A stretch of DNA of 7,898 nucleotides from JALSIF01 sp026981635 [NCBI: bacterium] (GTDB taxonomy: Bacteria > 4484-113 > JALSIF01). Position 1 is the first letter of the stretch; each line of letters begins with the position of its first letter. The stretch spans positions 1-7,898 of the forward strand of contig JALSIF010000309.1 in the NCBI GenBank assembly GCA_026981635.1. Direction: 5' to 3'. The notes under the pieces are model-generated. The model had not been told where the DNA came from. It searched no databases and was given only the letters and a program-made list of their open reading frames with translations. Made by a program: the position numbers and the translations under genes. Shown piece after piece: positions 1 to 7,898 of the stretch.

Positions 1-650
1 TTCTCCAGGGTGGTGCCGGCAAAGACTTGGTCGCCCGGTTCCTTCTCCCTTGGAACTGCCTCGCCGGTGAGGGCGGCCTCGCTAACTAGACCACTACCCC
101 TAACAACCCTACCGTCCAAGGGAATGTGTTCACCTGCGATCACTTGGATCAACGTACCGGGTGAGACCTCCGCACTGGGGACCATCAGAGCTTCTCCCCC
201 CGGAGTAATCACTCTCGCCTGATCAGGCTTGAGGGCTAGCAGGGCAGAAAGGCGCAGGTTCGCTCGCTTGACCGCGAAGCTCTCCAGAAACTCAGCAAAT
301 TCAAAAAGTACCACCACTACGACGGCCTCGGTCCAGGCACCAATAAACATTGCTCCGGCTACTGCCACAGTCATCAGGGAGAGGATGCTGGGGCGAAGCT
401 TTATGAGTCCCCTGACTCCCCGGGGGTAGATGTCCCAACCGGCGATAAGAGCAGACAGCAGGTAAAGGGGAAGCACCCACAAGTCTTCTGCTCCCCATTT
501 GACAGCCAGCTCTGCGGCTGCGAGAAAGACAATTGAGACCACTAACCGCCAGAACATCGGCCGGGAAGTGAGCTCCCTTATGAAGCCCAGTTCGTCCCCG
601 GGCTGCTGTTGGTTGTCCAACGTGCAAGCGCCACCACAATCACTTCCCAA
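1..650 (-). CDS. cadA: P1B-2-like heavy-metal (Zn/Cd/Pb) ATPase, N-terminal part, cut by the window edge
   Basis: Inner-membrane efflux pump for divalent soft metals, by family. The first 216 residues are visible: membrane segments near 35-52, 57-72, 90-104 and 106-122, then the actuator domain with TGEAVP at 195-200. The segment GAWTEAVVVVLF around 104-116, followed by AEFLE, resembles the ZntA/CadA subgroup rather than the copper one. The phosphorylation DKTGT and the metal-site CPC lie beyond the edge and cannot be checked. I chose a TTG start at 650-648: GGAGGTGG (664-657) sits six bases upstream, and the start overlaps the end of the repressor gene by 11 bases, indicating translational coupling. 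With this start there is no ferredoxin-like HMA domain (no GMxCxxC); only a short C5-G-G-A-C9 motif precedes the membrane part. An internal TTG (codon 11) is a weaker alternative. GC (about 53% in two hand-counted lines) is well below that of the repressor gene. The subgroup call is likely, not proven. Confidence 0.85.
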   Translation of the reverse strand, partial: MGSDCGGACTLDNQQQPGDELGFIRELTSRPMFWRLVVSIVFLAAAELAVKWGAEDLWVLPLYLLSALIAGWDIYPRGVRGLIKLRPSILSLMTVAVAGAMFIGAWTEAVVVVVLFEFAEFLESFAVKRANLRLSALLALKPDQARVITPGGEALMVPSAEVSPGTLIQVIAGEHIPLDGRVVRGSGLVSEAALTGEAVPREKEPGDQVFAGTTLE

Positions 651-1014
651 GGGAGGCCACCTCCATCCCAGGGAGAGCACATTCCCTGGCCTTCTCCAGC
701 AGGCCCCTGAGGATGGGGCAGGCCAGGCGGTAGTAGACCACGTTGCCGTGGCGGCGAGAACGTACCAGCCTTGCCTTGCGCAGGTAGCGCAGGTGGTGGC
801 TGGTGGCGGAGGGCGAGATGCCGGCCACCGAGGCCAGGTCGCATACGCAGAGTTCGCCGGTGATCAGGGCCATGAGGATGCGGAGGCGGCTGGGGTCGGC
901 CAGGGCCTGGAAGCGGTCGGCCAGCTCCAGTACCTCCAGCTCACCCGGCAGAGCCCGGCGGGCCCGCTCCACCGCCTCGGGGTGTTGGTGGGTGATGGTG
1001 CAGCGGTCTTCCAT
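640..1014 (-). CDS. ArsR/SmtB-family metal-sensing repressor, CadC/CmtR-like
   Basis: A 124-residue winged-helix repressor expected to bind its operator as a dimer and release it when metal binds. The core is typical: ALADPSRLRIL (37-47), the metal-box ELCVCDLA (54-61, C56 and C58), then the recognition helix SPSATSHHLRYL (67-78) and the wing HGNVVYYRL (89-97). C5 in the N-terminal tail together with the CxC pair matches the arrangement of the CadC site for Cd/Pb/Zn; C99 and C112 are additional cysteines. The gene starts at ATG 1014, with no Shine-Dalgarno sequence before it and the promoter -10 box ending only seven bases upstream, so the message is probably leaderless. It is the first gene of an operon with the metal ATPase, whose start it overlaps. 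GC is high (about 65-73% in hand-counted lines), unlike the ATPase downstream. Family assignment is firm; the exact inducing metal is inferred. Confidence 0.93.
   Translation of the reverse strand: MEDRCTITHQHPEAVERARRALPGELEVLELADRFQALADPSRLRILMALITGELCVCDLASVAGISPSATSHHLRYLRKARLVRSRRHGNVVYYRLACPILRGLLEKARECALPGMEVASLGK
657..664 (-). promoter_or_regulatory. Ribosome binding site fixing the TTG start of the metal ATPase
   Basis: GGAGGTGG on the minus strand, six bases before TTG 650-648, lies inside the last codons of the repressor gene. No ATG or GTG in the ATPase frame lies between the repressor stop region and the first membrane segment except Met32, which sits right at that segment, so this site decides the start. 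Confidence 0.6.
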
Positions 1015-1021
1015 AGGTGAG

Positions 1022-1050
1022 AGTATATGAGCAACTGCTCATATAGTCAA
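1022..1050 (-). promoter_or_regulatory. Sigma-70-type promoter of the repressor-ATPase operon
   Basis: On the minus strand TTGACT (1050-1045) and TATACT (1027-1022) are separated by exactly 17 bases; each matches the consensus at five of six positions. The predicted start of transcription, about seven bases past the -10 box, falls at about 1015, immediately before the repressor ATG at 1014, so little or no 5' leader is expected. Confidence 0.8.
1024..1045. promoter_or_regulatory. ArsR/SmtB-type operator palindrome
   Basis: TATATGAGCA (1024-1033) and TGCTCATATA (1036-1045) are perfect 10-base arms around a two-base centre. The layout and the TGAGCA-N2-TGCTCA core resemble the 12-2-12 operators of SmtB/CadC-type repressors. 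It fills the spacer between the -35 and -10 boxes of the repressor promoter, so bound repressor would block RNA polymerase: a classical autoregulated metal switch. Confidence 0.85.
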
Positions 1051-1094: not shown

Positions 1095-1111
1095 ATACCC
1101 CCAACGGGTAT
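1095..1111 (+). promoter_or_regulatory. Candidate CsoR/RcnR-type operator upstream of copA
   Basis: ATACCC (1095-1100) and GGGTAT (1106-1111) form an inverted repeat with a five-base centre, 37 bases before the copA start. The G/C-tract flanked by ATA/TAT resembles operators of the CsoR/RcnR copper- and nickel-sensor family. It is unrelated in sequence to the ArsR operator 50 bases away. I could not assign convincing -35 and -10 boxes for copA; TATATC at 1109-1114 is the best -10 candidate and would overlap this site. No CsoR gene is in the window. Confidence 0.45.
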
Positions 1112-1147: not shown

Positions 1148-4100
1148 ATGAGCAGTGAGGAAGGCCAGATCCAGGTGATTGATCCGGTCTGCGGGATGAA
1201 GGTTGACCCGGCCAAGGCGGCGGGCAGCTTTGAGTACAGGGGGAAGACCTACTACTTCTGTTCGGAGCACTGCCTAAGCAAGTTCAAGGCTAACCCGGAG
1301 GCATTCACCCAGGAGGAGGGAGAGGAGGAGCCCTCCATCGGTGGGCATATCCACCGTCACCATGACTCTGAGGAGAAGGAGCACCACTGTGGGTGCTGCC
1401 ATGGGGGCCACTCCCACCACTCCCACGACGGAAAGGAGTCCTCCCACCACCATTCCCACCCCCAAGCCCACGCTGCCGCTGCGGTGGGAACCCAGACTGG
1501 GGAAATAAAGGACCCGGTCTGTGGGATGACGGTTGATCCACAGAGGGCAGCGGGAAGCTTTGAATATGGCGGCAGGACCTACTACTTCTGCTCCGAGCAC
1601 TGCCTTGCCAAGTTCAAGGCCGACCCGGAAAGCTTCGTTGGGGTGGCCGCAGAGCCGGAAGAAGTGAAGGATCCGGTCTGTGGGATGACCATCAGCCCCG
1701 AGCAGGCAGCCGGCAGTGTGGAGCACAACGGAAAGCTCTATTACTTTTGCTCGGAGCACTGCCTGCACAAGTTCAGGGAGAACCCGGCAAAGTACGTCGG
1801 GGAGGAGGCTGAGCTTAAGGACCCGGTTTGCGGGATGAAGGTGGACCCGGAGGGTGCGGCAGGCAGTTTTGAATACAACGGGAAGACCTACTACTTCTGC
1901 TCCGAGCACTGCCTTGCCAAGTTCAAGGCCGACCCGGAAAGCTACCTAAAGCCCAAGGAGGCAGAGAGCTACTACTGCCCCGAGTGCGAGCACGAGCAGC
2001 CCGACCCTGGCTACTGCGTCCAGTGCGGGATTGAGCTGGTGCCCAAGGTGGAGTTTGTCCCCGGCGCCGAAGAGGGCGAGGTGGAGTACTTCTGCCCCAT
2101 GCACCCCGAAGTGGTGAGTGATAAGCCGGGGGAGTGCCCCAAGTGCGGCATGGCCCTGGAACCCCGCATCATCAGTGGTGAGGTACCCAAGGGAAGCCCC
2201 GAGCTGGCCGCATTAGCCAAGGACATGTGGTTCTCCATCATTCTGGCTATACCGATTGTTATTCTTGCCATGGGAGATTACTTCCCCGCTTTCTCCGATA
2301 GGTTTCTACCTATCAGCACCAAGCTCAACTATTGGCTTCAGTTCATCTTCATGACCCCGATCATGTTCGGCCCCGCTAGGCGCTTCTACCGCAACGCCTG
2401 GCAGGCATGGAAGGGCAGCCGCACCACCAACATGTTCACCCTGATCACCATCGGAATCGTGGCTGCCTATGTCTATAGCGTCATCGCCCTGCTCTTCCCG
2501 GGGCTCTTTCCACCCGAATTTAAGAAAAACGGGATGGTTGAGCCCTACTTTGAGACCGCCGCGGTGATCACCGCCCTGATCTTTGTGGGCGTTTATCTGG
2601 AGGCCTATGCACGTTACGCCACCAACGACGCCATCCGCAAGCTGATCGGGCTTGCCCCCAAGACGGCGCGGGTGGTCCGCAACGGTGAGGAGGTGGACAT
2701 CCCGGTAAGTGAAGTCAAGGTAGGCGACATAGTGGTGGTGCGGCCGGGGGAGAAGATCCCGGTGGACGGGGTGATCATTGAGGGTGAGAGCCAGGTGGAC
2801 GAGAGCATGGTGACCGGCGAGCCCATCCCGGTGGATAAGGAGCCGGGAGATGAGGTGATCGGCGCCACCATCAACAAGGCAGGCACCTTCAAGTTCCGCG
2901 CCACCAAGGTGGGCCGGGAGACGGTGCTGGCCCAGATCATCCAGCTGGTCCAGGAGGCCCAGGCTAGCCGTCCCCCCATCCAGAAGTTGGTGGACCGGGT
3001 ATCAAGCTACTTCGTCCCCGCGGTGATCGTCATTGCCATCATCAGCTTCTTCGCCTGGCTCTTTTGGGGGCCTAGTCCCTCCCTCAACTACGCCCTGGTC
3101 GCCTTCGTCTCGGTGCTCATCATCGCCTGCCCATGCGCCCTGGGCATCGCCACCCCGTCGGCCATCATGATCGGAACTGGAAAAGGGGCCCTGAGCGGCA
3201 TCCTCATCCGTAACGCCGAGGCGCTGGAGAAGCTGGGCAAGGTTGATGCGGTGGTGATGGACAAGACCGGCACCCTCACCAAGGGCGAGCCGGCGGTGAG
3301 CGAGGTGATCCTGGTTGACGGCGACGAGGCTGAGGTGATGGGTCTGGTGGGGGCTGTGGAGCGGGGCTCCGAGCACCCCCTGGCCGAGGCCATCGTTGAC
3401 TATGTGAAGGAGAAGGGCTACCCGGAGAGGCAGGCCACCGGCTTTGAGGCCATCTCGGGAAAGGGTGCGGTGGCTGAGGTGGAGGGCCACAAGGTGGCGG
3501 TGGGCAACCTGAAGCTGATGAGCGAGCTGGGGATTGATATCGCTCCCCTGAGAGACAAGCTTGAGCGGCTCACCTCCCGCGGTGCCACCCCGGTCTTCAT
3601 CTCCATTGACGGGAAACTCAATGGGCTGATTGCCATTGAGGACCAGCTAAAGGAGAGCAGCATCCCGGCGGTGCGGGAGCTTCACCAGATGGGCATCAAG
3701 GTGATCATGCTCACCGGCGACGACCGCCGCACCGCCAAGGCCATCGCCGAGAAGGTGGGGATTGACGAGGTGATCGCCGAGGTGCTACCGGCGGAGAAGG
3801 CGGCCAAGGTAAAGGAGCTCCAGCAGCGGGGTCTCAGGGTGGCCATGGTGGGCGACGGGATCAACGACGCCCCCGCCCTGATGCAGGCCGATGTGGGCAT
3901 CGCCATGGGTTCGGGAACCGACGTGGCCATCGAATCGGCCGGAGTTACCCTGATGCACAGCGACCCCATGGGGGTGGTAAAGGCGATCAAGCTCAGCCGG
4001 GCCACCATGGTAAATATCAAGCAGAACCTGTTTTGGGCTTTCTTCTACAACACCCTGGGCGTACCGCTGGCGGCAGGGGTGCTCTATCCCTTCATCGGCC

Positions 4101-4195
4101 TGGTGATCAGCCCGGTGTTTGCCGCCGCAGCGATGGGCTTCAGCTCGGTGAGCGTGGTCCTCAACGCCTCCCGATTGAAGTGGGTCAAGGTGTAG
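1148..4195 (+). CDS. copA: Cu(I) P1B-1 ATPase with four N-terminal YHS domains and a His-rich insert
   Basis: Copper efflux ATPase of the inner membrane, 1015 residues, about 200 longer than a typical CopA. The N-terminal array is, in order: YHS1 (10-54; C15, C38, C42), a His/Cys-rich insert (67-108; 16 His, 3 Cys), YHS2 (120-164), YHS3 (173-216), YHS4 (223-267), a CPEC...CVQC zinc-knuckle-like pair (277-293) and a CPMHP...CPKCGM heavy-metal-binding domain (313-338). No HMA GMxCxxC domain is present. The pump core is complete: TM1-4 at about 358-376, 393-411, 429-450 and 468-487; TGEP (556-559); TM6 with CPC (661-663); DKTGT (D705); SEHP (H743); GDGINDAP (902-909); YN in TM7 (967-968); MGFSS in TM8 (996-1000). 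CPC plus YN plus MxxSS is the Cu(I) signature. The start is well supported by GGAGG (1136-1140) seven bases before ATG. It is transcribed away from the ArsR operon and convergent with the metallopeptidase, 28 bases away. Copper specificity is strongly inferred; the role of the four YHS domains (metal capture, sensing or delivery) is unknown. Confidence 0.95.
1576..1634 (+). repeat. 59-base perfect direct repeat in copA, copy 1 (YHS2)
   Basis: Bases 1576-1634 are identical to 1885-1943, with an offset of 309 bases (103 codons). This copy encodes the C-terminal half of YHS2, from the TYYFCSEHC motif through the KADPES stretch. Identity at every third codon position points to recent duplication or gene conversion rather than protein selection alone. 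Confidence 0.9.
1885..1943 (+). repeat. 59-base perfect direct repeat in copA, copy 2 (YHS4)
   Basis: Second copy of the repeat at 1576-1634, here in the C-terminal half of YHS4. Being in phase, recombination between the two copies would remove or add exactly 103 codons, changing the number of YHS domains without breaking the frame. Confidence 0.9.
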
Positions 4196-4223: not shown

Positions 4224-5411
4224 TCACCTGAAGCTGCGCCTGGCCTCAAGAAGGAGGTTGAGGGCTACCACCAGCCACGCCTCCACCTCGTTTAGGCGCC
4301 CGAGTCTGTATCTGTGGTGATGGGCGGATATCAGGCTGTCAATCTGAAAGCCTGGGTAGCTCCCCACTCGCCAGCGGTCGGCGTTAATAAGGACGAAGTC
4401 GCCCCCGTAGTGGCTAAAGAGCTGGTAGCCCTGATAGACCTCAGACTGGGTGTATGCTTCCCGGTAGAAGGCGTCCTCAGCGAAAAACAGCCTCGCCTCA
4501 TCCATCGGGGTGAGCAGGTGGCGAAGGGCAGTTAGGCTTATGGCGTTGGCCAAGCTTTCTTCCACCACCCGCTCAAAGTATTCCTTTCCTGTTTTCCAGC
4601 GAGGGGGAAAGGAGGGCCAGGGTCTCCTTGCCCTGAAATCCATCATGCCATGGCCAAGCTCATGGGACAGGGTCGCAACCAGGTTGAAGAGGAAGCCCCA
4701 CAATAGTCTTCTTGCAAGCACTAAATTTCTCCCCCTGAGCCTCCAGATTACGGGTGTACGGTGATATTTAATCTGTAGTATCCTCCAAGGAAGGATCCGC
4801 CAAATTCCCCAGAGATTCATGGCCGAAGCCGCGCTGGGCGGGAACTTGAGGAACCTCTGCGGGCAGAGTAAGATGAGTGGATCGAAGTAGTCAAAGTCTT
4901 TGTGGCCCTTGGGCAGGTAAAGTCCCCAGGCTGCTAGCCACCAGGTCGGCTTTTTCTTTGGCTCCCTCTTTTCCCCAGCCTCTTCCCAGCCTCCGCCCCT
5001 TACCTGAGTTTCATCCAGTGGGATCCACTCTTCCTCGGGAAGCTCGCGCAGATCTTCCGGGGTTTCAATGAAGGGGGGAGGTGATGGCTTTATGGGACGC
5101 TGGGCCTCCGCAAGCCGGGTGAATATGGACATGAGAAATGGGAAAAGCTCCTCGGGGTCAATCCCCTCCCACCTTTCAACCTCATCAAGGATGCTGTCCA
5201 GAACCTCTCGGGGTACGTACTTGAGTTTGGCTGGGGGATAGATTGAATCAATGGTTCTCGGTGAAACTGTGATAACTGGAATACGGCTCCAGACACTCCT
5301 GAGACCCCGTGATGTGGCAGCCTTGCATAGTGTAGTTATGTCATCACTAAATCTAAAACCAGAGTCCCAGTCGGTGATTGTGTAGGGCCTAAGCTTCTTG
5401 CTGGACTGCAT
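4224..5411 (-). CDS. Putative HELGH zinc metallopeptidase of unknown family
   Basis: A 395-residue protein I cannot name. HELGH at 250-254 is a HExxH zinc-peptidase site, and EESLANA at 284-290 about 30 residues later would supply the third zinc ligand (E284 or E285), a gluzincin-like layout reminiscent of ImmA/IrrE-type HExxH...E(x)AN proteins. The N-terminal 100 residues have no recognisable domain. Residues 104-155 are a Pro/Glu/Lys-rich, probably disordered linker. Residues 156-245 are rich in Trp, Leu and Arg, with a hydrophobic stretch directly before HELGH. HHHRYRLGR occurs near the C-terminus. There is no signal peptide, so it is probably cytoplasmic or membrane-associated. The start is supported by GGAGG (5421-5417) five bases before ATG. 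It stands alone: convergent with copA and divergent from the acetyltransferase. GC is lower than its neighbours (about 45-47% in two hand-counted lines), suggesting separate ancestry. No immunity or phage-repressor partner is adjacent. A catalytic role is inferred only from the motif. Confidence 0.85.
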   Translation of the reverse strand: MQSSKKLRPYTITDWDSGFRFSDDITTLCKAATSRGLRSVWSRIPVITVSPRTIDSIYPPAKLKYVPREVLDSILDEVERWEGIDPEELFPFLMSIFTRLAEAQRPIKPSPPPFIETPEDLRELPEEEWIPLDETQVRGGGWEEAGEKREPKKKPTWWLAAWGLYLPKGHKDFDYFDPLILLCPQRFLKFPPSAASAMNLWGIWRILPWRILQIKYHRTPVIWRLRGRNLVLARRLLWGFLFNLVATLSHELGHGMMDFRARRPWPSFPPRWKTGKEYFERVVEESLANAISLTALRHLLTPMDEARLFFAEDAFYREAYTQSEVYQGYQLFSHYGGDFVLINADRWRVGSYPGFQIDSLISAHHHRYRLGRLNEVEAWLVVALNLLLEARRSFR

Positions 5412-6106: not shown

Positions 6107-6403
6107 CTATCTTTCTAGCCCATTTCCCTGATCTGATGGTGGTGTGACAAGCGGTGGCTCTCCCCTGAGCAGGTCGAGGATCTCCCGGTGCTCGCGGGAG
6201 AGGCGCTCCAGGTGGAGGGTGAGAAGCTCTGCCACCAGCCGGTCATCGCTCTCAAGCTTTTTCTGCAGGAAGCTCTGGTAGCGGGCCTCAAGCTCTCCCC
6301 GCTGGCGCTGGCGCAGGGTGAGGGTACGGGCCAGGGCGAAACTGAGCGGGATGAGCAGTGCCTCCACCGCCGCAATCAGTCTGAGCAGCTCAGCTTCGCT
6401 CAA
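6107..6403 (-). CDS. Small membrane protein with coiled coil, holin-like candidate
   Basis: A 98-residue protein without a recognised family. Residues 5-29 are a likely single membrane helix (Leu/Ala/Ile-rich, ending before RQRQR). Residues 35-80 are strongly charged and helical with heptad-like Leu spacing, suggesting a coiled coil, and the last 18 residues are Pro/Gly-rich. A short N-terminal anchor followed by a charged coiled coil is the design of BhlA/UviB-type holins and some tail accessory proteins, which fits its place as the last gene of a phage-type run; this is inference from layout only. The start is TTG (6403-6401), six bases after the stop of the preceding gene, with only a weak upstream GCAGGG, so it probably depends on translational coupling. 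Its stop abuts that of the acetyltransferase gene. Confidence 0.6.
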   Translation of the reverse strand: MSEAELLRLIAAVEALLIPLSFALARTLTLRQRQRGELEARYQSFLQKKLESDDRLVAELLTLHLERLSREHREILDLLRGEPPLVTPPSDQGNGLER

Positions 6404-6409
6404 GGGGGA

Positions 6410-6712
6410 TCAGCCCTGCTCTGGCGCCCCAGATGGAGGGCCGGCCGGGTCGGTCACTTTGCTCAGCCGCTCGGGCTGGCTCATTAGCACCGTCTCAATG
6501 AGCAGGTTTAGGAGCACGGTGCTGATCTCGCCGGGGTAGAGCCGGCGGAAGCGGCGCTGGACCTCCCGTCGGGCCACCTCGCCGCTGAGGCCCTCCTGTT
6601 CAACCTCCCTCACCAGTTTGGAGAGAAGCAATGCCTCGCGCCAGAAGAGCTCGGTGAGCAGCGAGAGGCTGAACCTTATGAGATGCCTGGAAAGCTTGCC
6701 CAAAAGACTCAC
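6410..6712 (-). CDS. Small helical protein, possibly related to LLH-type phage holins
   Basis: A 100-residue protein, mostly helical. The N-terminal 35 residues are amphipathic to hydrophobic but interrupted by Arg and Glu, so a true membrane helix is doubtful. The middle, VEQEGLSGEVARREVQRRF, followed by a segment with LLNLLIETVL, resembles the soluble half of LLH-type phage holins (EQxGLxGEEK... LIEAAV); I rate this as a hint only. The C-terminus is Pro/Gly-rich. GTG start (6712-6710) with an excellent AGGAGGTGA (6727-6719) six bases upstream makes the gene call strong despite its size. It lies 42 bases after the tail-fibre-like gene and is followed six bases later by the small membrane-protein gene, so all are probably one transcript. 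Confidence 0.72.
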   Translation of the reverse strand: MSLLGKLSRHLIRFSLSLLTELFWREALLLSKLVREVEQEGLSGEVARREVQRRFRRLYPGEISTVLLNLLIETVLMSQPERLSKVTDPAGPPSGAPEQG

Positions 6713-6718
6713 TTCAAA

Positions 6719-6727
6719 TCACCTCCT
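6719..6727 (-). promoter_or_regulatory. Strong ribosome binding site deciding a GTG start
   Basis: AGGAGGTGA on the minus strand matches the 16S tail over nine bases and lies six bases before GTG 6712-6710. It settles the start of the 100-residue gene, which has no ATG near its N-terminus. Confidence 0.85.
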
Positions 6728-6754
6728 CGGTTGATGTCAGATCTGCCCATGACC

Positions 6755-7474
6755 TCAGGCGGAAAGCTCCAGCCAGGGCAGGTCTCCCCCTGCCGCCCCC
6801 GGCGAGAGGCTCAGGCTCTGGGGCAGGGGCTGGCCTGAGGGGTGGGCCTGGATGAGGTGGGCGAGGGCGGCCACTCCACCGGCCAGGGAGTAGGTGTGAA
6901 AGGAGGCAGCAAGGGGGGCGAGCAGGCGGAAGGCCAGGTAGATCGCCCCCTGGGAAAGCTCCGGTGCGCCAGTCAGGGGGAACCGGTAGGTATCCCCGCC
7001 CTCAGCCTGGGCTGTGCTGCCGTCAAGGCTGAGGCTGGCCAGAAGGTCGGCCTGGCTGGCTCCCCGGGGCAGGTAGAGGCCCACTTCGGAAAACTCCACC
7101 GCTGGCGGCGCCTGGTCCAGGGCTAGGCGGATGGCGCGGGGAATGAGGCGGCCGGGGAGGTGGAGCAGGGCGAGGTAGAGCTGGTCGGTGATGAGGGGAG
7201 CGGTGCCGCTGGGCAGGGGAGTTGCGGCAAGGTAGATGACGGGGGCGGTGAGGGTGACGGTGCCGCCGCCGGCGGAAACCGCGATGCCTCCCTGGCCCTC
7301 CATGGTCACCCTGCCGCTGGCCTCGCCGCCGGCAAGATCTGAGATCACCCTCACCCCGTCCAGGCCCAGGCCGCCGGTGTTCTCCGGTGGAGCGGGGCCG
7401 GCCCCCGGCTGAGCCACCCTCACTCCCGCCTGCACCTGCCGGCGGGAAAGAAACCTCTTAAGCTCCTCCATCAC
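6755..7474 (-). CDS. Probable phage tail-fibre/tail-associated protein
   Basis: A 239-residue protein, Gly/Ala/Leu-rich and predicted beta-rich. Residues 34-75 carry GLGLDGVRVI... and GGIAVSAGGGTVTL (62-75), a pattern common in phage tail fibres and baseplate-attached spikes. Residues 110-210 look like a jelly-roll-type module (VGLYLP, SLDG, YRFPLTGAPELSQGAIYLAFRLL, SFHTYSLAGG), as in receptor-binding tail tips. The assignment rests on these patterns and on position directly downstream of a hub-like gene. The start is GTG (7474-7472), overlapping the upstream stop by four bases with GGAGGGG (7489-7483) eight bases before it; the ATG one codon later is possible. High GC, like the other three genes of the run. 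Confidence 0.7.
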   Translation of the reverse strand: MMEELKRFLSRRQVQAGVRVAQPGAGPAPPENTGGLGLDGVRVISDLAGGEASGRVTMEGQGGIAVSAGGGTVTLTAPVIYLAATPLPSGTAPLITDQLYLALLHLPGRLIPRAIRLALDQAPPAVEFSEVGLYLPRGASQADLLASLSLDGSTAQAEGGDTYRFPLTGAPELSQGAIYLAFRLLAPLAASFHTYSLAGGVAALAHLIQAHPSGQPLPQSLSLSPGAAGGDLPWLELSA

Positions 7475-7898
7475 GGGTCAAACCCCTCCACCGTGGTGAG
7501 CCTTCCCTCCACCTCGGTCTGCCAGGCGCGGTGGACCACCGCGGTGACCAGCACCAGGTAGTCCTTCCCACTTATGGGATGGGTGATCTGGACCGTCATC
7601 CCCGGCCTCACCACCGGGTCAAAGGCAAAGCTTGCCCTCACCCTCACCCTGGGCATGGTGGAGCTGTCCCGAAGGCTTGCCGCCCGGGCCACCGCCGCCG
7701 CACTGCCCAGCTCGGTTCCACGATCCTCCACCTTGACCAGCGGGCCCACCAGGCTAAGGCGTCCTAGGGTGCTCGGTGCGTAGCCGGGGGCGCTGGGGTC
7801 GCTGGGCTGGAGGGTGGCCACCGCCTCCTTGTGGCCGTCGGGGATAACCGTAAGCTCCCCCAGCCCCAGGGCCAGGCTGTCCTCCCCCGGACTGTCAA
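7471..7898 (-). CDS. Probable phage tail baseplate-hub/late-control-like protein, C-terminal part, cut by the window edge
   Basis: The frame is open without a stop from 7898 down to TGA 7473-7471, giving at least 141 residues. The visible part ends with VRVRASFAFDPVVRPGMTVQI, then SGKDYLVLVTAVVHRAW and TTVEGFDP. A PGMTVxI strand followed by a G-x-x-YLVxxVxH strand is typical of the C-terminal domain of phage tail hub proteins (gpD/XkdQ-type), which form the barrel under the tail tube. GTG at 7821 is an internal codon, not a likely start, since coding sequence continues upstream (LTVIPDGHKEAVATL). It overlaps the fibre-like gene by four bases, a tight operon. The phage-type role is inferred from sequence style, not from a definitive motif. 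Confidence 0.65.
   Translation of the reverse strand, partial: DSPGEDSLALGLGELTVIPDGHKEAVATLQPSDPSAPGYAPSTLGRLSLVGPLVKVEDRGTELGSAAAVARAASLRDSSTMPRVRVRASFAFDPVVRPGMTVQITHPISGKDYLVLVTAVVHRAWQTEVEGRLTTVEGFDP

What the first reader, a model, noticed from the sequence alone, without database searches (positions are those of the whole stretch)
1148..2170. Copper ATPase with four YHS domains, a His-rich insert and two more Cys modules
The N-terminal 340 residues of CopA hold four YHS units (Cys 15/38/42, 125/148/152, 178/201/205, 228/251/255), a 42-residue insert with 16 His and 3 Cys, a CxxC...CxxC knuckle and a CPMHP-type domain, while the usual HMA ferredoxin-fold domains are absent. One YHS or one CPMHP domain on a P1B ATPase is familiar; four YHS plus the His/Cys insert on one pump is not an arrangement I know. 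It could be a high-capacity copper sponge, a sensor that gates the pump, or a way to strip copper from several donors.
Basis: partly seen in the sequence, partly recalled or inferred. Interest (0 to 1): 0.7.

Follow-up and report, generated by a model that had tools for sequence, protein, structure and literature searches.

The report
Copper pump with six metal modules
This is a bacterial copper-export pump whose front end has been expanded to four copper-binding "YHS" beads, a histidine-rich loop and two more small metal-binding units; it is an extreme version of a known pump type rather than a new kind of machine, and it would be a good natural test of why some pumps carry many such units.

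Summary
Plasmid SilP has YHS-His-HMBD; two YHS are in print for Rhizobiales; at least 9 of 148 Nitrospirota genomes sampled have three; a zetaproteobacterium has four. The "knuckle" is best read as a diverged first HMBD. Against the Legionella CopA domain solved by NMR it has lost both copper-binding methionines and gained a four-Cys site; the second HMBD keeps the copper site. So the N-terminus is six small modules on a flexible string, most likely a copper sensor and buffer that holds the pump back until copper is high. That is inferred from Legionella CopA and ATP7B; nothing was measured. The four YHS resemble one another more than any other sampled YHS. The core lies outside the main YHS/HMBD clade, but its exact place is unresolved. 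Verdict: a real, rare, extreme variant of a known kind.

The parts
1148..4195 (+). CopA-type P1B-1 Cu+-ATPase, 1015 aa; GGAGG at 1136-1140 before the ATG
   Evidence: TIGR01511 619.9 bits, cut-off 397; best solved relative 3rfu, Legionella CopA, 783 bits
1175..1312 (+). YHS 1; ligands D12, C15, C38, C42
   Evidence: (67.6 bits)
1346..1471 (+). His/Cys loop, residues 67-108 (16 His, 3 Cys); predicted disordered (residues 60-115 pLDDT under 50)
   Evidence: no Pfam match
1505..1642 (+). YHS 2; D122, C125, C148, C152
   Evidence: (68.0 bits)
1664..1804 (+). YHS 3; D175, C178, C201, C205
   Evidence: (69.4 bits)
1817..1954 (+). YHS 4; D225, C228, C251, C255; shares a 59-nt identical run with YHS 2
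   Evidence: (70.3 bits)
1973..2044 (+). four-Cys knuckle (C277, C280, C290, C293), read as a diverged first HMBD with both copper-site Met replaced (E279, I295) and His replaced by C280
2087..2164 (+). HMBD (CPMHP...CPKCGM), copper-site residues M318, C333, M335 kept
2213..4195 (+). membrane and catalytic core: M429, E485, D616 (copper entry), TGE 556-558, C661-P-C663, D705KTGT, H743-P, Y967-N968...P973, M996xxS999S1000
1095..1111 (.). CsoR-type box ATACCC-CCAAC-GGGTAT between arsR and copA (likeness to CsoR boxes recalled, binding not tested)
   Evidence: 9 places in own genome, 0 for the reversed control; four matches to the CsoR family PF02583
1024..1045 (.). perfect 10-2-10 palindrome lying between the -35-like and -10-like hexamers of a promoter-like site before arsR
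   Evidence: 0 of 200 shuffles
640..1014 (-). ArsR/SmtB-family metalloregulator, divergent from copA; probably serves the pump fragment behind it
   Evidence: NF033788 98.1 bits, cut-off 55
1..620 (-). end-truncated second P1B ATPase (runs off the contig); start not determined, right end approximate
   Evidence: (12-329, 38% identity)

Best explanation
The protein is a Cu+-exporting P1B-1 ATPase whose cytosolic N-terminus has been enlarged into six small metal modules on a flexible string: YHS1, disordered His/Cys loop, YHS2, YHS3, YHS4, a Cys4-type HMBD and a copper-type HMBD next to the first membrane helix. Proposed working: at low copper the empty N-terminus lies against the soluble domains and slows turnover. 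As copper rises, the D/Cys3 sites of the YHS units, the His/Cys loop and finally the Met-Cys-Met site of the membrane-proximal HMBD load; the string comes away and the pump runs. The extra YHS units would raise the buffering capacity and shift or sharpen the copper threshold. The Cys4 HMBD no longer carries the copper ligands and most likely holds zinc as a rigid spacer. Shown here: the modules, their intact putative ligands, the intact transport-pathway motifs, that the four YHS are more like one another than like any other of the sampled YHS (in-gene duplication, or duplication plus gene conversion), predicted fold of each bead and disorder of the loop. Inferred from relatives: copper binding by YHS, autoinhibition, its release by copper, zinc in the knuckle.
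For: Four YHS over the curated cut-off, each with the Asp plus three Cys that PMC4626032 proposes as the metal site (passages; there the YHS domain of an M. phlei cyclase confers activation by copper); all 16 ligands present. Copper-pump signatures intact. Closest solved relative is Legionella CopA: HMBD sequence match to 8ovl/3rfu and fold match to 8ovl, TM 0.81 by target length, rmsd 1.0, E 0.007. For that domain PMC11970713 reports a trigonal M44/C59/M61 site, a flexible tail held responsible for autoinhibition, about 70% activity loss when the CXXC is mutated, and no effect of the free domain on the truncated pump (abstract and passages). The window keeps all three ligands in HMBD2 (M318, C333, M335); the equivalents in the knuckle are E279, C293, I295. 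Structure prediction: 256 of 345 residues at pLDDT 70 or more, the four YHS with the same strand-strand-helix pattern, pTM 0.37 (no fixed arrangement of the beads), loop 60-115 below 50. For ATP7B-type pumps PMC10973460 argues that distal MBDs may be autoinhibitory and speculates that more of them raise copper sensitivity (passages).
Against: No binding, transport or regulation was measured here; PMC4626032 (2015) states that copper binding to YHS/TRASH had not been demonstrated in these transporters. Legionella CopA has no YHS, so the autoinhibition model is carried over from a shorter N-terminus. PMC11970713 also cites an earlier report that Legionella CopA lost almost all activity when the MBD was removed, and PMC4179477 reports that T. 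maritima CopA needs its N-terminal domain for turnover (passages); those data favour activation rather than simple inhibition. The structure prediction gives no relative placement of beads and core. Many bacterial pumps work with fewer modules, so the extra YHS could be near neutral.
Confidence: 0.5

Rival explanations
1. Sponge only: the YHS string and His loop are a passive high-capacity copper store tethered to the pump, with no effect on the catalytic cycle.
For: Sixteen putative YHS ligands, 16 His and 3 extra Cys in one tail; module counts vary freely among relatives (1 to 4 YHS; at least 26 changes of YHS number on a 106-row tree), and a Moraxella plasmid pump has instead repeated an HMBD-His unit four times, as if bulk capacity matters rather than exact layout.
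Against: The Legionella CopA work gives the tail and MBD a regulatory role; the proximal HMBD keeps its copper site while the distal units vary.
Confidence: 0.25
2. Built-in chaperone: the YHS units pass copper by hand-over to the entry site and replace a CopZ-type chaperone.
For: The window's assembly has only two HMA matches, in a second pump and in a MerT-like protein (both identities read by eye), so no stand-alone CopZ was seen; assembly 85% complete.
Against: Genomes with three- or four-YHS pumps often do have small HMA frames: of ten such genomes searched, G010, G011, G012, G014, G368, G109 and G070 have one of 150 aa or less; G015, G286 and G218 do not. Isolated Legionella MBD core did not alter the activity of the truncated pump (PMC11970713).
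Confidence: 0.12
3. Broader metal sensing: the pump answers to zinc, cadmium or silver as well as copper, the Cys4 knuckle being a separate zinc sensor.
For: Cys4 knuckle with both copper Met lost; neighbouring divergent ArsR-type regulator and second P1B pump; SilP, annotated as a silver pump, is a relative.
Against: Transport-site motifs are those of Cu+ pumps; the box nearest copA is CsoR-like while the palindrome sits in the promoter-like site before arsR itself; Cys4 zinc knuckles are usually structural (established knowledge, recalled).
Confidence: 0.08
4. Neutral drift: tandem YHS copies come and go by recombination with little functional effect.
For: YHS 2 and 4 share 59 identical nucleotides; Rhodanobacter YHS 1 and 2 are 96% identical; copy number changes often.
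Against: All 16 putative ligands are intact in copies that otherwise differ at 9-18 of 46 residues, which argues for selection on the metal site.
Confidence: 0.05

Closest known systems
Legionella pneumophila CopA (3rfu; N-terminal domain 8ovl)
   Same: Cu+ P1B-1 core (783 bits), His-rich flexible N-terminal stretch, membrane-proximal HMBD with the Met-Cys-Met site
   Different: no YHS in the aligned chain, one HMBD; window core lies outside the clade of YHS/HMBD pumps sampled (Legionella CopA itself was not a row of the trees)
SilP, silver pump of enterobacterial plasmids (locus L039)
   Same: YHS, then His-rich stretch, then HMBD, then P1B-1 core
   Different: one YHS, one HMBD; window has four YHS and a Cys4 HMBD
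Rhizobiales P1B-1b pumps (PMC5552934, passages)
   Same: His-rich segment and two TRASH/YHS copies before a CPKC motif; grouped there with Lpg1024 and SilP
   Different: two YHS instead of four; His-rich segment before both YHS rather than between YHS1 and YHS2; rhizobial two-YHS cores fall in the clade that leaves the window out
Zetaproteobacterium SZUA-26 pump (locus L044, genome G012)
   Same: four YHS over the Pfam cut-off plus two HMBDs in one 947-aa open frame
   Different: its YHS are only 46-47% alike within the protein and nearer to those of relatives; first HMBD is CPMC with both Met kept; no long His loop between YHS1 and YHS2; core inside the YHS/HMBD clade
Nitrospirota three-YHS pumps (L042, L134, L136, L138-L141, L201)
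   Same: tandem YHS plus two HMBDs, first HMBD a CPMC (CxxC...CxxC) variant
   Different: three YHS; Met/Pro-rich linkers in those printed; both Met kept in HMBD1
Human ATP7A/ATP7B
   Same: six N-terminal metal modules on a P1B-1 core (six MBDs per PMC10973460, passages)
   Different: ATP7 modules are HMA ferredoxin folds; here four YHS and two HMBD-type units, so any likeness is convergent

Membership tests
P1B-1 Cu+-ATPase (CopA) | CPC in the ion-binding helix, YN(x)4P, MxxSS, DKTGT, TGE, HP | tested here: met
   C661-P-C663, Y967-N968-P973, M996xxS999S1000, D705KTGT, TGE 556-558, H743-P; TIGR01511 over cut-off
P1B-1 Cu+-ATPase (CopA) | ATP-dependent Cu+ export | not testable with these tools
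   no assay possible
YHS domain (PF04945) | curated score cut-off, Asp plus three Cys | tested here: met
   four hits of 67.6-70.3 bits, cut-off 30.3; ligands in all four
HMBD (PF19335), residues 314-339 | curated score cut-off; CPMHP...CxxCGM | tested here: met
   54.0 bits, cut-off 23.6; 8ovl match
HMBD (PF19335), knuckle 276-299 | curated score cut-off | tested here: not met
   17.4 bits, cut-off 23.6, though it covers model positions 2-28 of 28; zinc ribbons score alike (DZR 18.2, Zn_Ribbon_1 17.7) but cover only part of their models or of the knuckle. So: diverged HMBD by position, alignment (58 against a shuffle maximum of 48 in 2000) and predicted strand pattern, not a formal member
P1B-1b of PMC5552934 | poly-His start followed by two YHS, 160 aa before the CPKC motif | tested here: not met
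   four YHS, His stretch between YHS1 and YHS2, over 300 aa before the CPKC at 330-333
P1B-1a/1b core clade | core grouping with SilP-type and rhizobial pumps | tested here: inconclusive
   a 100/100 branch holds 23 YHS- or HMBD-bearing cores and leaves the window out, but the window as their sister is not rejected (p-AU 0.228)
HMA-type CopA (ferredoxin-fold MBD) | N-terminal HMA domain (PF00403) | tested here: not met
   no PF00403 in the protein; own-genome HMA matches lie elsewhere
ArsR/SmtB regulator (640-1014) | NCBIfam NF033788 cut-off | tested here: met
   98.1 bits, cut-off 55

The most novel reading that the evidence does not exclude
A bacterial counterpart of the six-module regulatory tail of ATP7A/B, built from unrelated folds: four YHS sensors and two HMBDs in which the first HMBD has been rebuilt from a Met-Cys-Met copper site into a Cys4 zinc site. 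The pump would then read copper on the YHS units and the proximal HMBD while zinc occupancy of the knuckle sets the geometry, so that YHS copy number works as an evolvable dial for the copper threshold.
Probability: 0.2. Interest if true: 0.65.

Novelty: new variant of a known kind. Interest (0 to 1): 0.42.

Why it matters
The role of metal-binding domains on copper pumps is still disputed, and PMC10973460 and PMC11970713 both say that prokaryotic pumps have one or two (passages). Here is a family in which the number of one small module runs from one to at least four on the same type of pump, with some very recent duplications. That is a natural series for asking whether more modules mean a lower threshold, a steeper response or simply more storage. 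The knuckle adds a concrete, testable case of a copper site turned into a likely zinc site within the same fold.

Tried and rejected
Rejected: (1) four YHS as an assembly artefact: each copy has its own sequence, the only long exact repeat is 59 nt between YHS2 and YHS4. (2) The knuckle as an unrelated zinc ribbon: DZR and Zn_Ribbon_1 score about as high as HMBD but over part of the stretch or of their model, and relatives show CPMC HMBDs at the same place; kept as a small doubt because HMBD is below its cut-off. (3) YHS as a general substitute for CopZ: seven of ten three/four-YHS genomes searched have a small HMA frame. (4) Independent capture of the whole N-terminus by an HMA-type core: suggested by the trees but not established. 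My first AU test (p 0.003) held together a badly chosen set that left out the Moraxella row lying inside the clade; with the right set p was 0.228, so I make no such claim. (5) RNA element: no Rfam match at gathering threshold in the window.

Led nowhere: viral-contig scan with the single protein found no relative, with alignment A1 two loci that I did not study further; Pfam and PHROGs gave no family over a cut-off for ORFs 6107-6403, 6410-6712, 6755-7474 and 7471-7821, and for 4224-5411 no Pfam family and one weak PHROG (E 0.011). One search failed on a file name and was rerun. Fold search against the viral library and VIA-align were not run.

The Nitrospirota sample (148, including the seed genome G010) had its match listing cut. 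Of 164 Pseudomonadota genomes with a match (398 searched, including the seed G012) I read YHS counts in 42: 30 best loci and 12 further genomes among the fetched regions. Only the Zetaproteobacteria sample (61 genomes, including the seed) was listed in full. The names Nitrospirota, Pseudomonadota and Zetaproteobacteria for these samples rest on the record titles of the seed loci; the genomes themselves are unnamed. Before the 106-row tree I dropped duplicates, cores under 520 residues, frames whose DKTG lay before residue 380, and cores without a CPC in place.

Full report
What is there. The window is a whole contig (G000:C309) of a fragmented 1.745-Mb genome, 317 contigs, 85% complete, alone in its genus in the collection. 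The ORF at 1148-4195 encodes a 1,015-residue protein with E1-E2 ATPase and hydrolase domains, TIGR01511 (copper-translocating P-type ATPase) over its cut-off and Legionella CopA as best solved relative. The Cu+ transport motifs are intact: CPC 661-663, YN 967-968 with P973, M996xxSS; so are the residues aligned with Legionella M148, E205 and D337 (window M429, E485, D616). That these three form the copper entry region is recalled, with related passages in PMC9433437, which itself doubts a direct role of the Glu and Asp.

The N-terminus. Pfam finds four YHS over the cut-off and one HMBD, no HMA. All four YHS keep the Asp and three Cys that PMC4626032 proposes to bind copper (passages). They are 28-37 of 46 residues identical to each other, YHS2 and YHS4 share an identical 59-nt run, and in a set of 141 YHS domains from fetched loci each of the four has its best match inside this protein. 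So they multiplied, or were kept alike, within this gene. That is not general: across the multi-YHS proteins of that set 20 of 97 domains, the window's four included, have their best match in the same protein. The 'knuckle' (277-293) aligns with the HMBD that follows it (score 58; 2,000 shuffles mean 15.9, maximum 48), is matched by the HMBD model over its full length though below the cut-off (17.4 against 23.6 bits), and has the same predicted strand pattern as the HMBD. Of 47 distinct pairs of tandem HMBDs printed, the first unit has CPMH in 23, CPMC in 14 and CPMD in 10, while the second has CPMHP in 45 and CPMDP in two (L048, L096). The CPMC form is itself a CxxC...CxxC knuckle. The window's version has CPE and CGI where all of those have CPM and CGM. 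Caution: the pairs were found with an HMM that favours CPM...CGM; a pattern search without that bias, over the same loci, found CPMC forms and the window only.

Meaning of the knuckle. In the NMR structure of the Legionella domain the metal is held by M44, C59 and M61, while C42, C56, C59 and H45 line up with the ligands of zinc domains (PMC11970713, abstract and passages). In the window HMBD2 keeps M318, C333 and M335. In the knuckle the equivalents are E279, C293 and I295, and H45 has become C280. The simplest reading is that the first HMBD has given up the copper site and completed the Cys4 site. That it holds zinc is inference.

Structure. AlphaFold2 on residues 1-345 with 45 sequences gives mean pLDDT 81.3, 206 residues at 90 or more, pTM 0.37 and a stretch 60-115 below 50: confident beads, no fixed mutual arrangement, disordered His loop. 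Foldseek against the PDB gave no match at E 0.001 or better; first is the Legionella HMBD (8ovl; E 0.007, TM 0.81 by target, rmsd 1.0), then weak ones that include YHS-like parts of toluene 4-monooxygenase (5tdv, 30 columns, rmsd 0.9, E 0.28) and a TRASH domain (2das, E 0.16).

How unusual. Plasmids: 3,291 of 72,556 records match the N-terminus; the 60 listed best places all span under 540 bases, less than four tandem YHS need, so none listed has four. SilP on an enterobacterial plasmid is YHS-His-HMBD-pump; a Tardiphaga and a Rhizobium leguminosarum plasmid pump have two YHS. Genomes: of the 80 best loci, YHS-bearing ORFs with the DKTG motif number 72: one with four, four with three, 29 with two, 38 with one; a further 21 YHS-bearing ORFs lacked the motif, being cut off or not ATPases. 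The four-YHS case, from a record titled Zetaproteobacteria, and the three-YHS cases were confirmed with Pfam's own model. Around the Nitrospira seed at least nine of 148 sampled genomes have three YHS in one long frame (eight from the cut listing, one more); the DKTG motif was seen in eight of the nine, and none of the listed frames had four. In the Zetaproteobacteria sample 38 of 61 genomes have a YHS hit; one (the seed) has four in a frame and four have three, one of these a 441-aa fragment. In the window's own phylum nine other genomes are held: G008 has a pump with two YHS and two HMBDs, G007 a split pump with one YHS, and two frames without the DKTG motif (in G007 and G004) carry two YHS-like units. 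So four is rare (two cases seen), three is uncommon but recurrent, and one or two are common.

Descent of the core. In a 106-row quick tree the window core falls outside the 99 YHS/HMBD cores; in a 31-row careful tree a 100/100 branch unites 23 YHS- or HMBD-bearing cores without it, and the window groups weakly (87/71; 80 with a mixture model) with five pumps whose N-termini look HMA- or cupredoxin-like by eye. The window as sister to the 23 is not rejected (p-AU 0.228). Either it is the deepest member of the type or a separate pump lineage with the same modules. The state 'three or more YHS' needs at least eight changes on the 106-row tree, so expansion probably happened repeatedly.

Setting. 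Divergent from copA is an ArsR-family gene (640-1014) followed by the cut-off start of another P1B pump. A perfect palindrome at 1024-1045 lies between the hexamers of a promoter-like site before arsR. Nearer to copA, at 1095-1111, is ATACCC-N5-GGGTAT, found at nine places in this genome and at none when the pattern is read backwards. The genome has four matches to the CsoR family. The likeness to CsoR boxes is recalled, not tested. If right, copA is switched on by copper through CsoR while ArsR serves the other pump.

Literature. I searched the open PMC library five times for YHS or SilP together with copper pumps and twice more for Legionella CopA. The listings and passages I saw mention at most two YHS on a pump (PMC5552934). 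PMC11082258 says that three of ten metagenomic CopA-like proteins put into an E. coli copA mutant have a predicted YHS domain (two passages). I cannot say that four-YHS pumps are absent from print, only that these searches did not show one.

Judgement. The finding is real and correctly described. It is an extreme member of a known, under-studied kind of copper pump. The best-supported working is a long copper-sensing and buffering tail that restrains the pump at low copper, with a zinc-like first HMBD as a structural link. The regulatory step is inferred from Legionella CopA and ATP7B and could be settled with ordinary deletions and metal titrations.

Noticed in passing
L211:658-3495 (Moraxella osloensis plasmid): A copper pump with four HMBDs, three of them scoring identically (41.3 bits) at a 73-residue period with a His-rich linker: the same kind of N-terminal module expansion reached with a different module.
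   Followed up: partly
L050:4465-5262 (Rhodanobacter thiooxydans): YHS1 and YHS2 are 96% identical with near-identical CCG/His-rich linkers: a very recent duplication of a YHS-plus-His unit.
   Followed up: partly
tandem-HMBD loci: In pairs of HMBDs the His of the first unit is His, Cys or Asp (23, 14 and 10 of 47 pairs) while the membrane-proximal unit is CPMHP in 45 of 47, suggesting different jobs for the two.
   Followed up: partly
window 1095-1111 and eight other places in G000 (L222-L229): ATACCC-N5-GGGTAT boxes, nine in 1.7 Mb against none for the reversed pattern; one (L225, site at 1599) lies between a Met-rich secreted-looking protein and a divergent gene.
   Followed up: partly
window 1-1045: arsR next to a truncated second P1B pump with a perfect 10-2-10 palindrome inside the promoter-like site before arsR; looks like a self-regulated metal-export unit back to back with copA.
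   Followed up: partly
window 4224-5411 (-): 395-aa protein with an HELGHG metallopeptidase-like motif (read by eye), no Pfam match and one weak PHROG (E 0.011).
   Followed up: no
window 6107-7821 (-): Four ORFs in a row without Pfam or PHROG match.
   Followed up: no
L017 and L012 (G007:C11): In a relative of the same class the YHS-HMBD copper pump lies in two adjacent open frames (516 and 465 aa), apparently interrupted.
   Followed up: no
L153 (G000:C24): A MerT-like membrane protein fused to an HMA domain (read by eye); with a second pump on C293 it holds the only HMA matches in this assembly.
   Followed up: partly
L109:3214 (Pseudarthrobacter enclensis): Three YHS copies in a 640-aa frame without the DKTG motif.
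   Followed up: no
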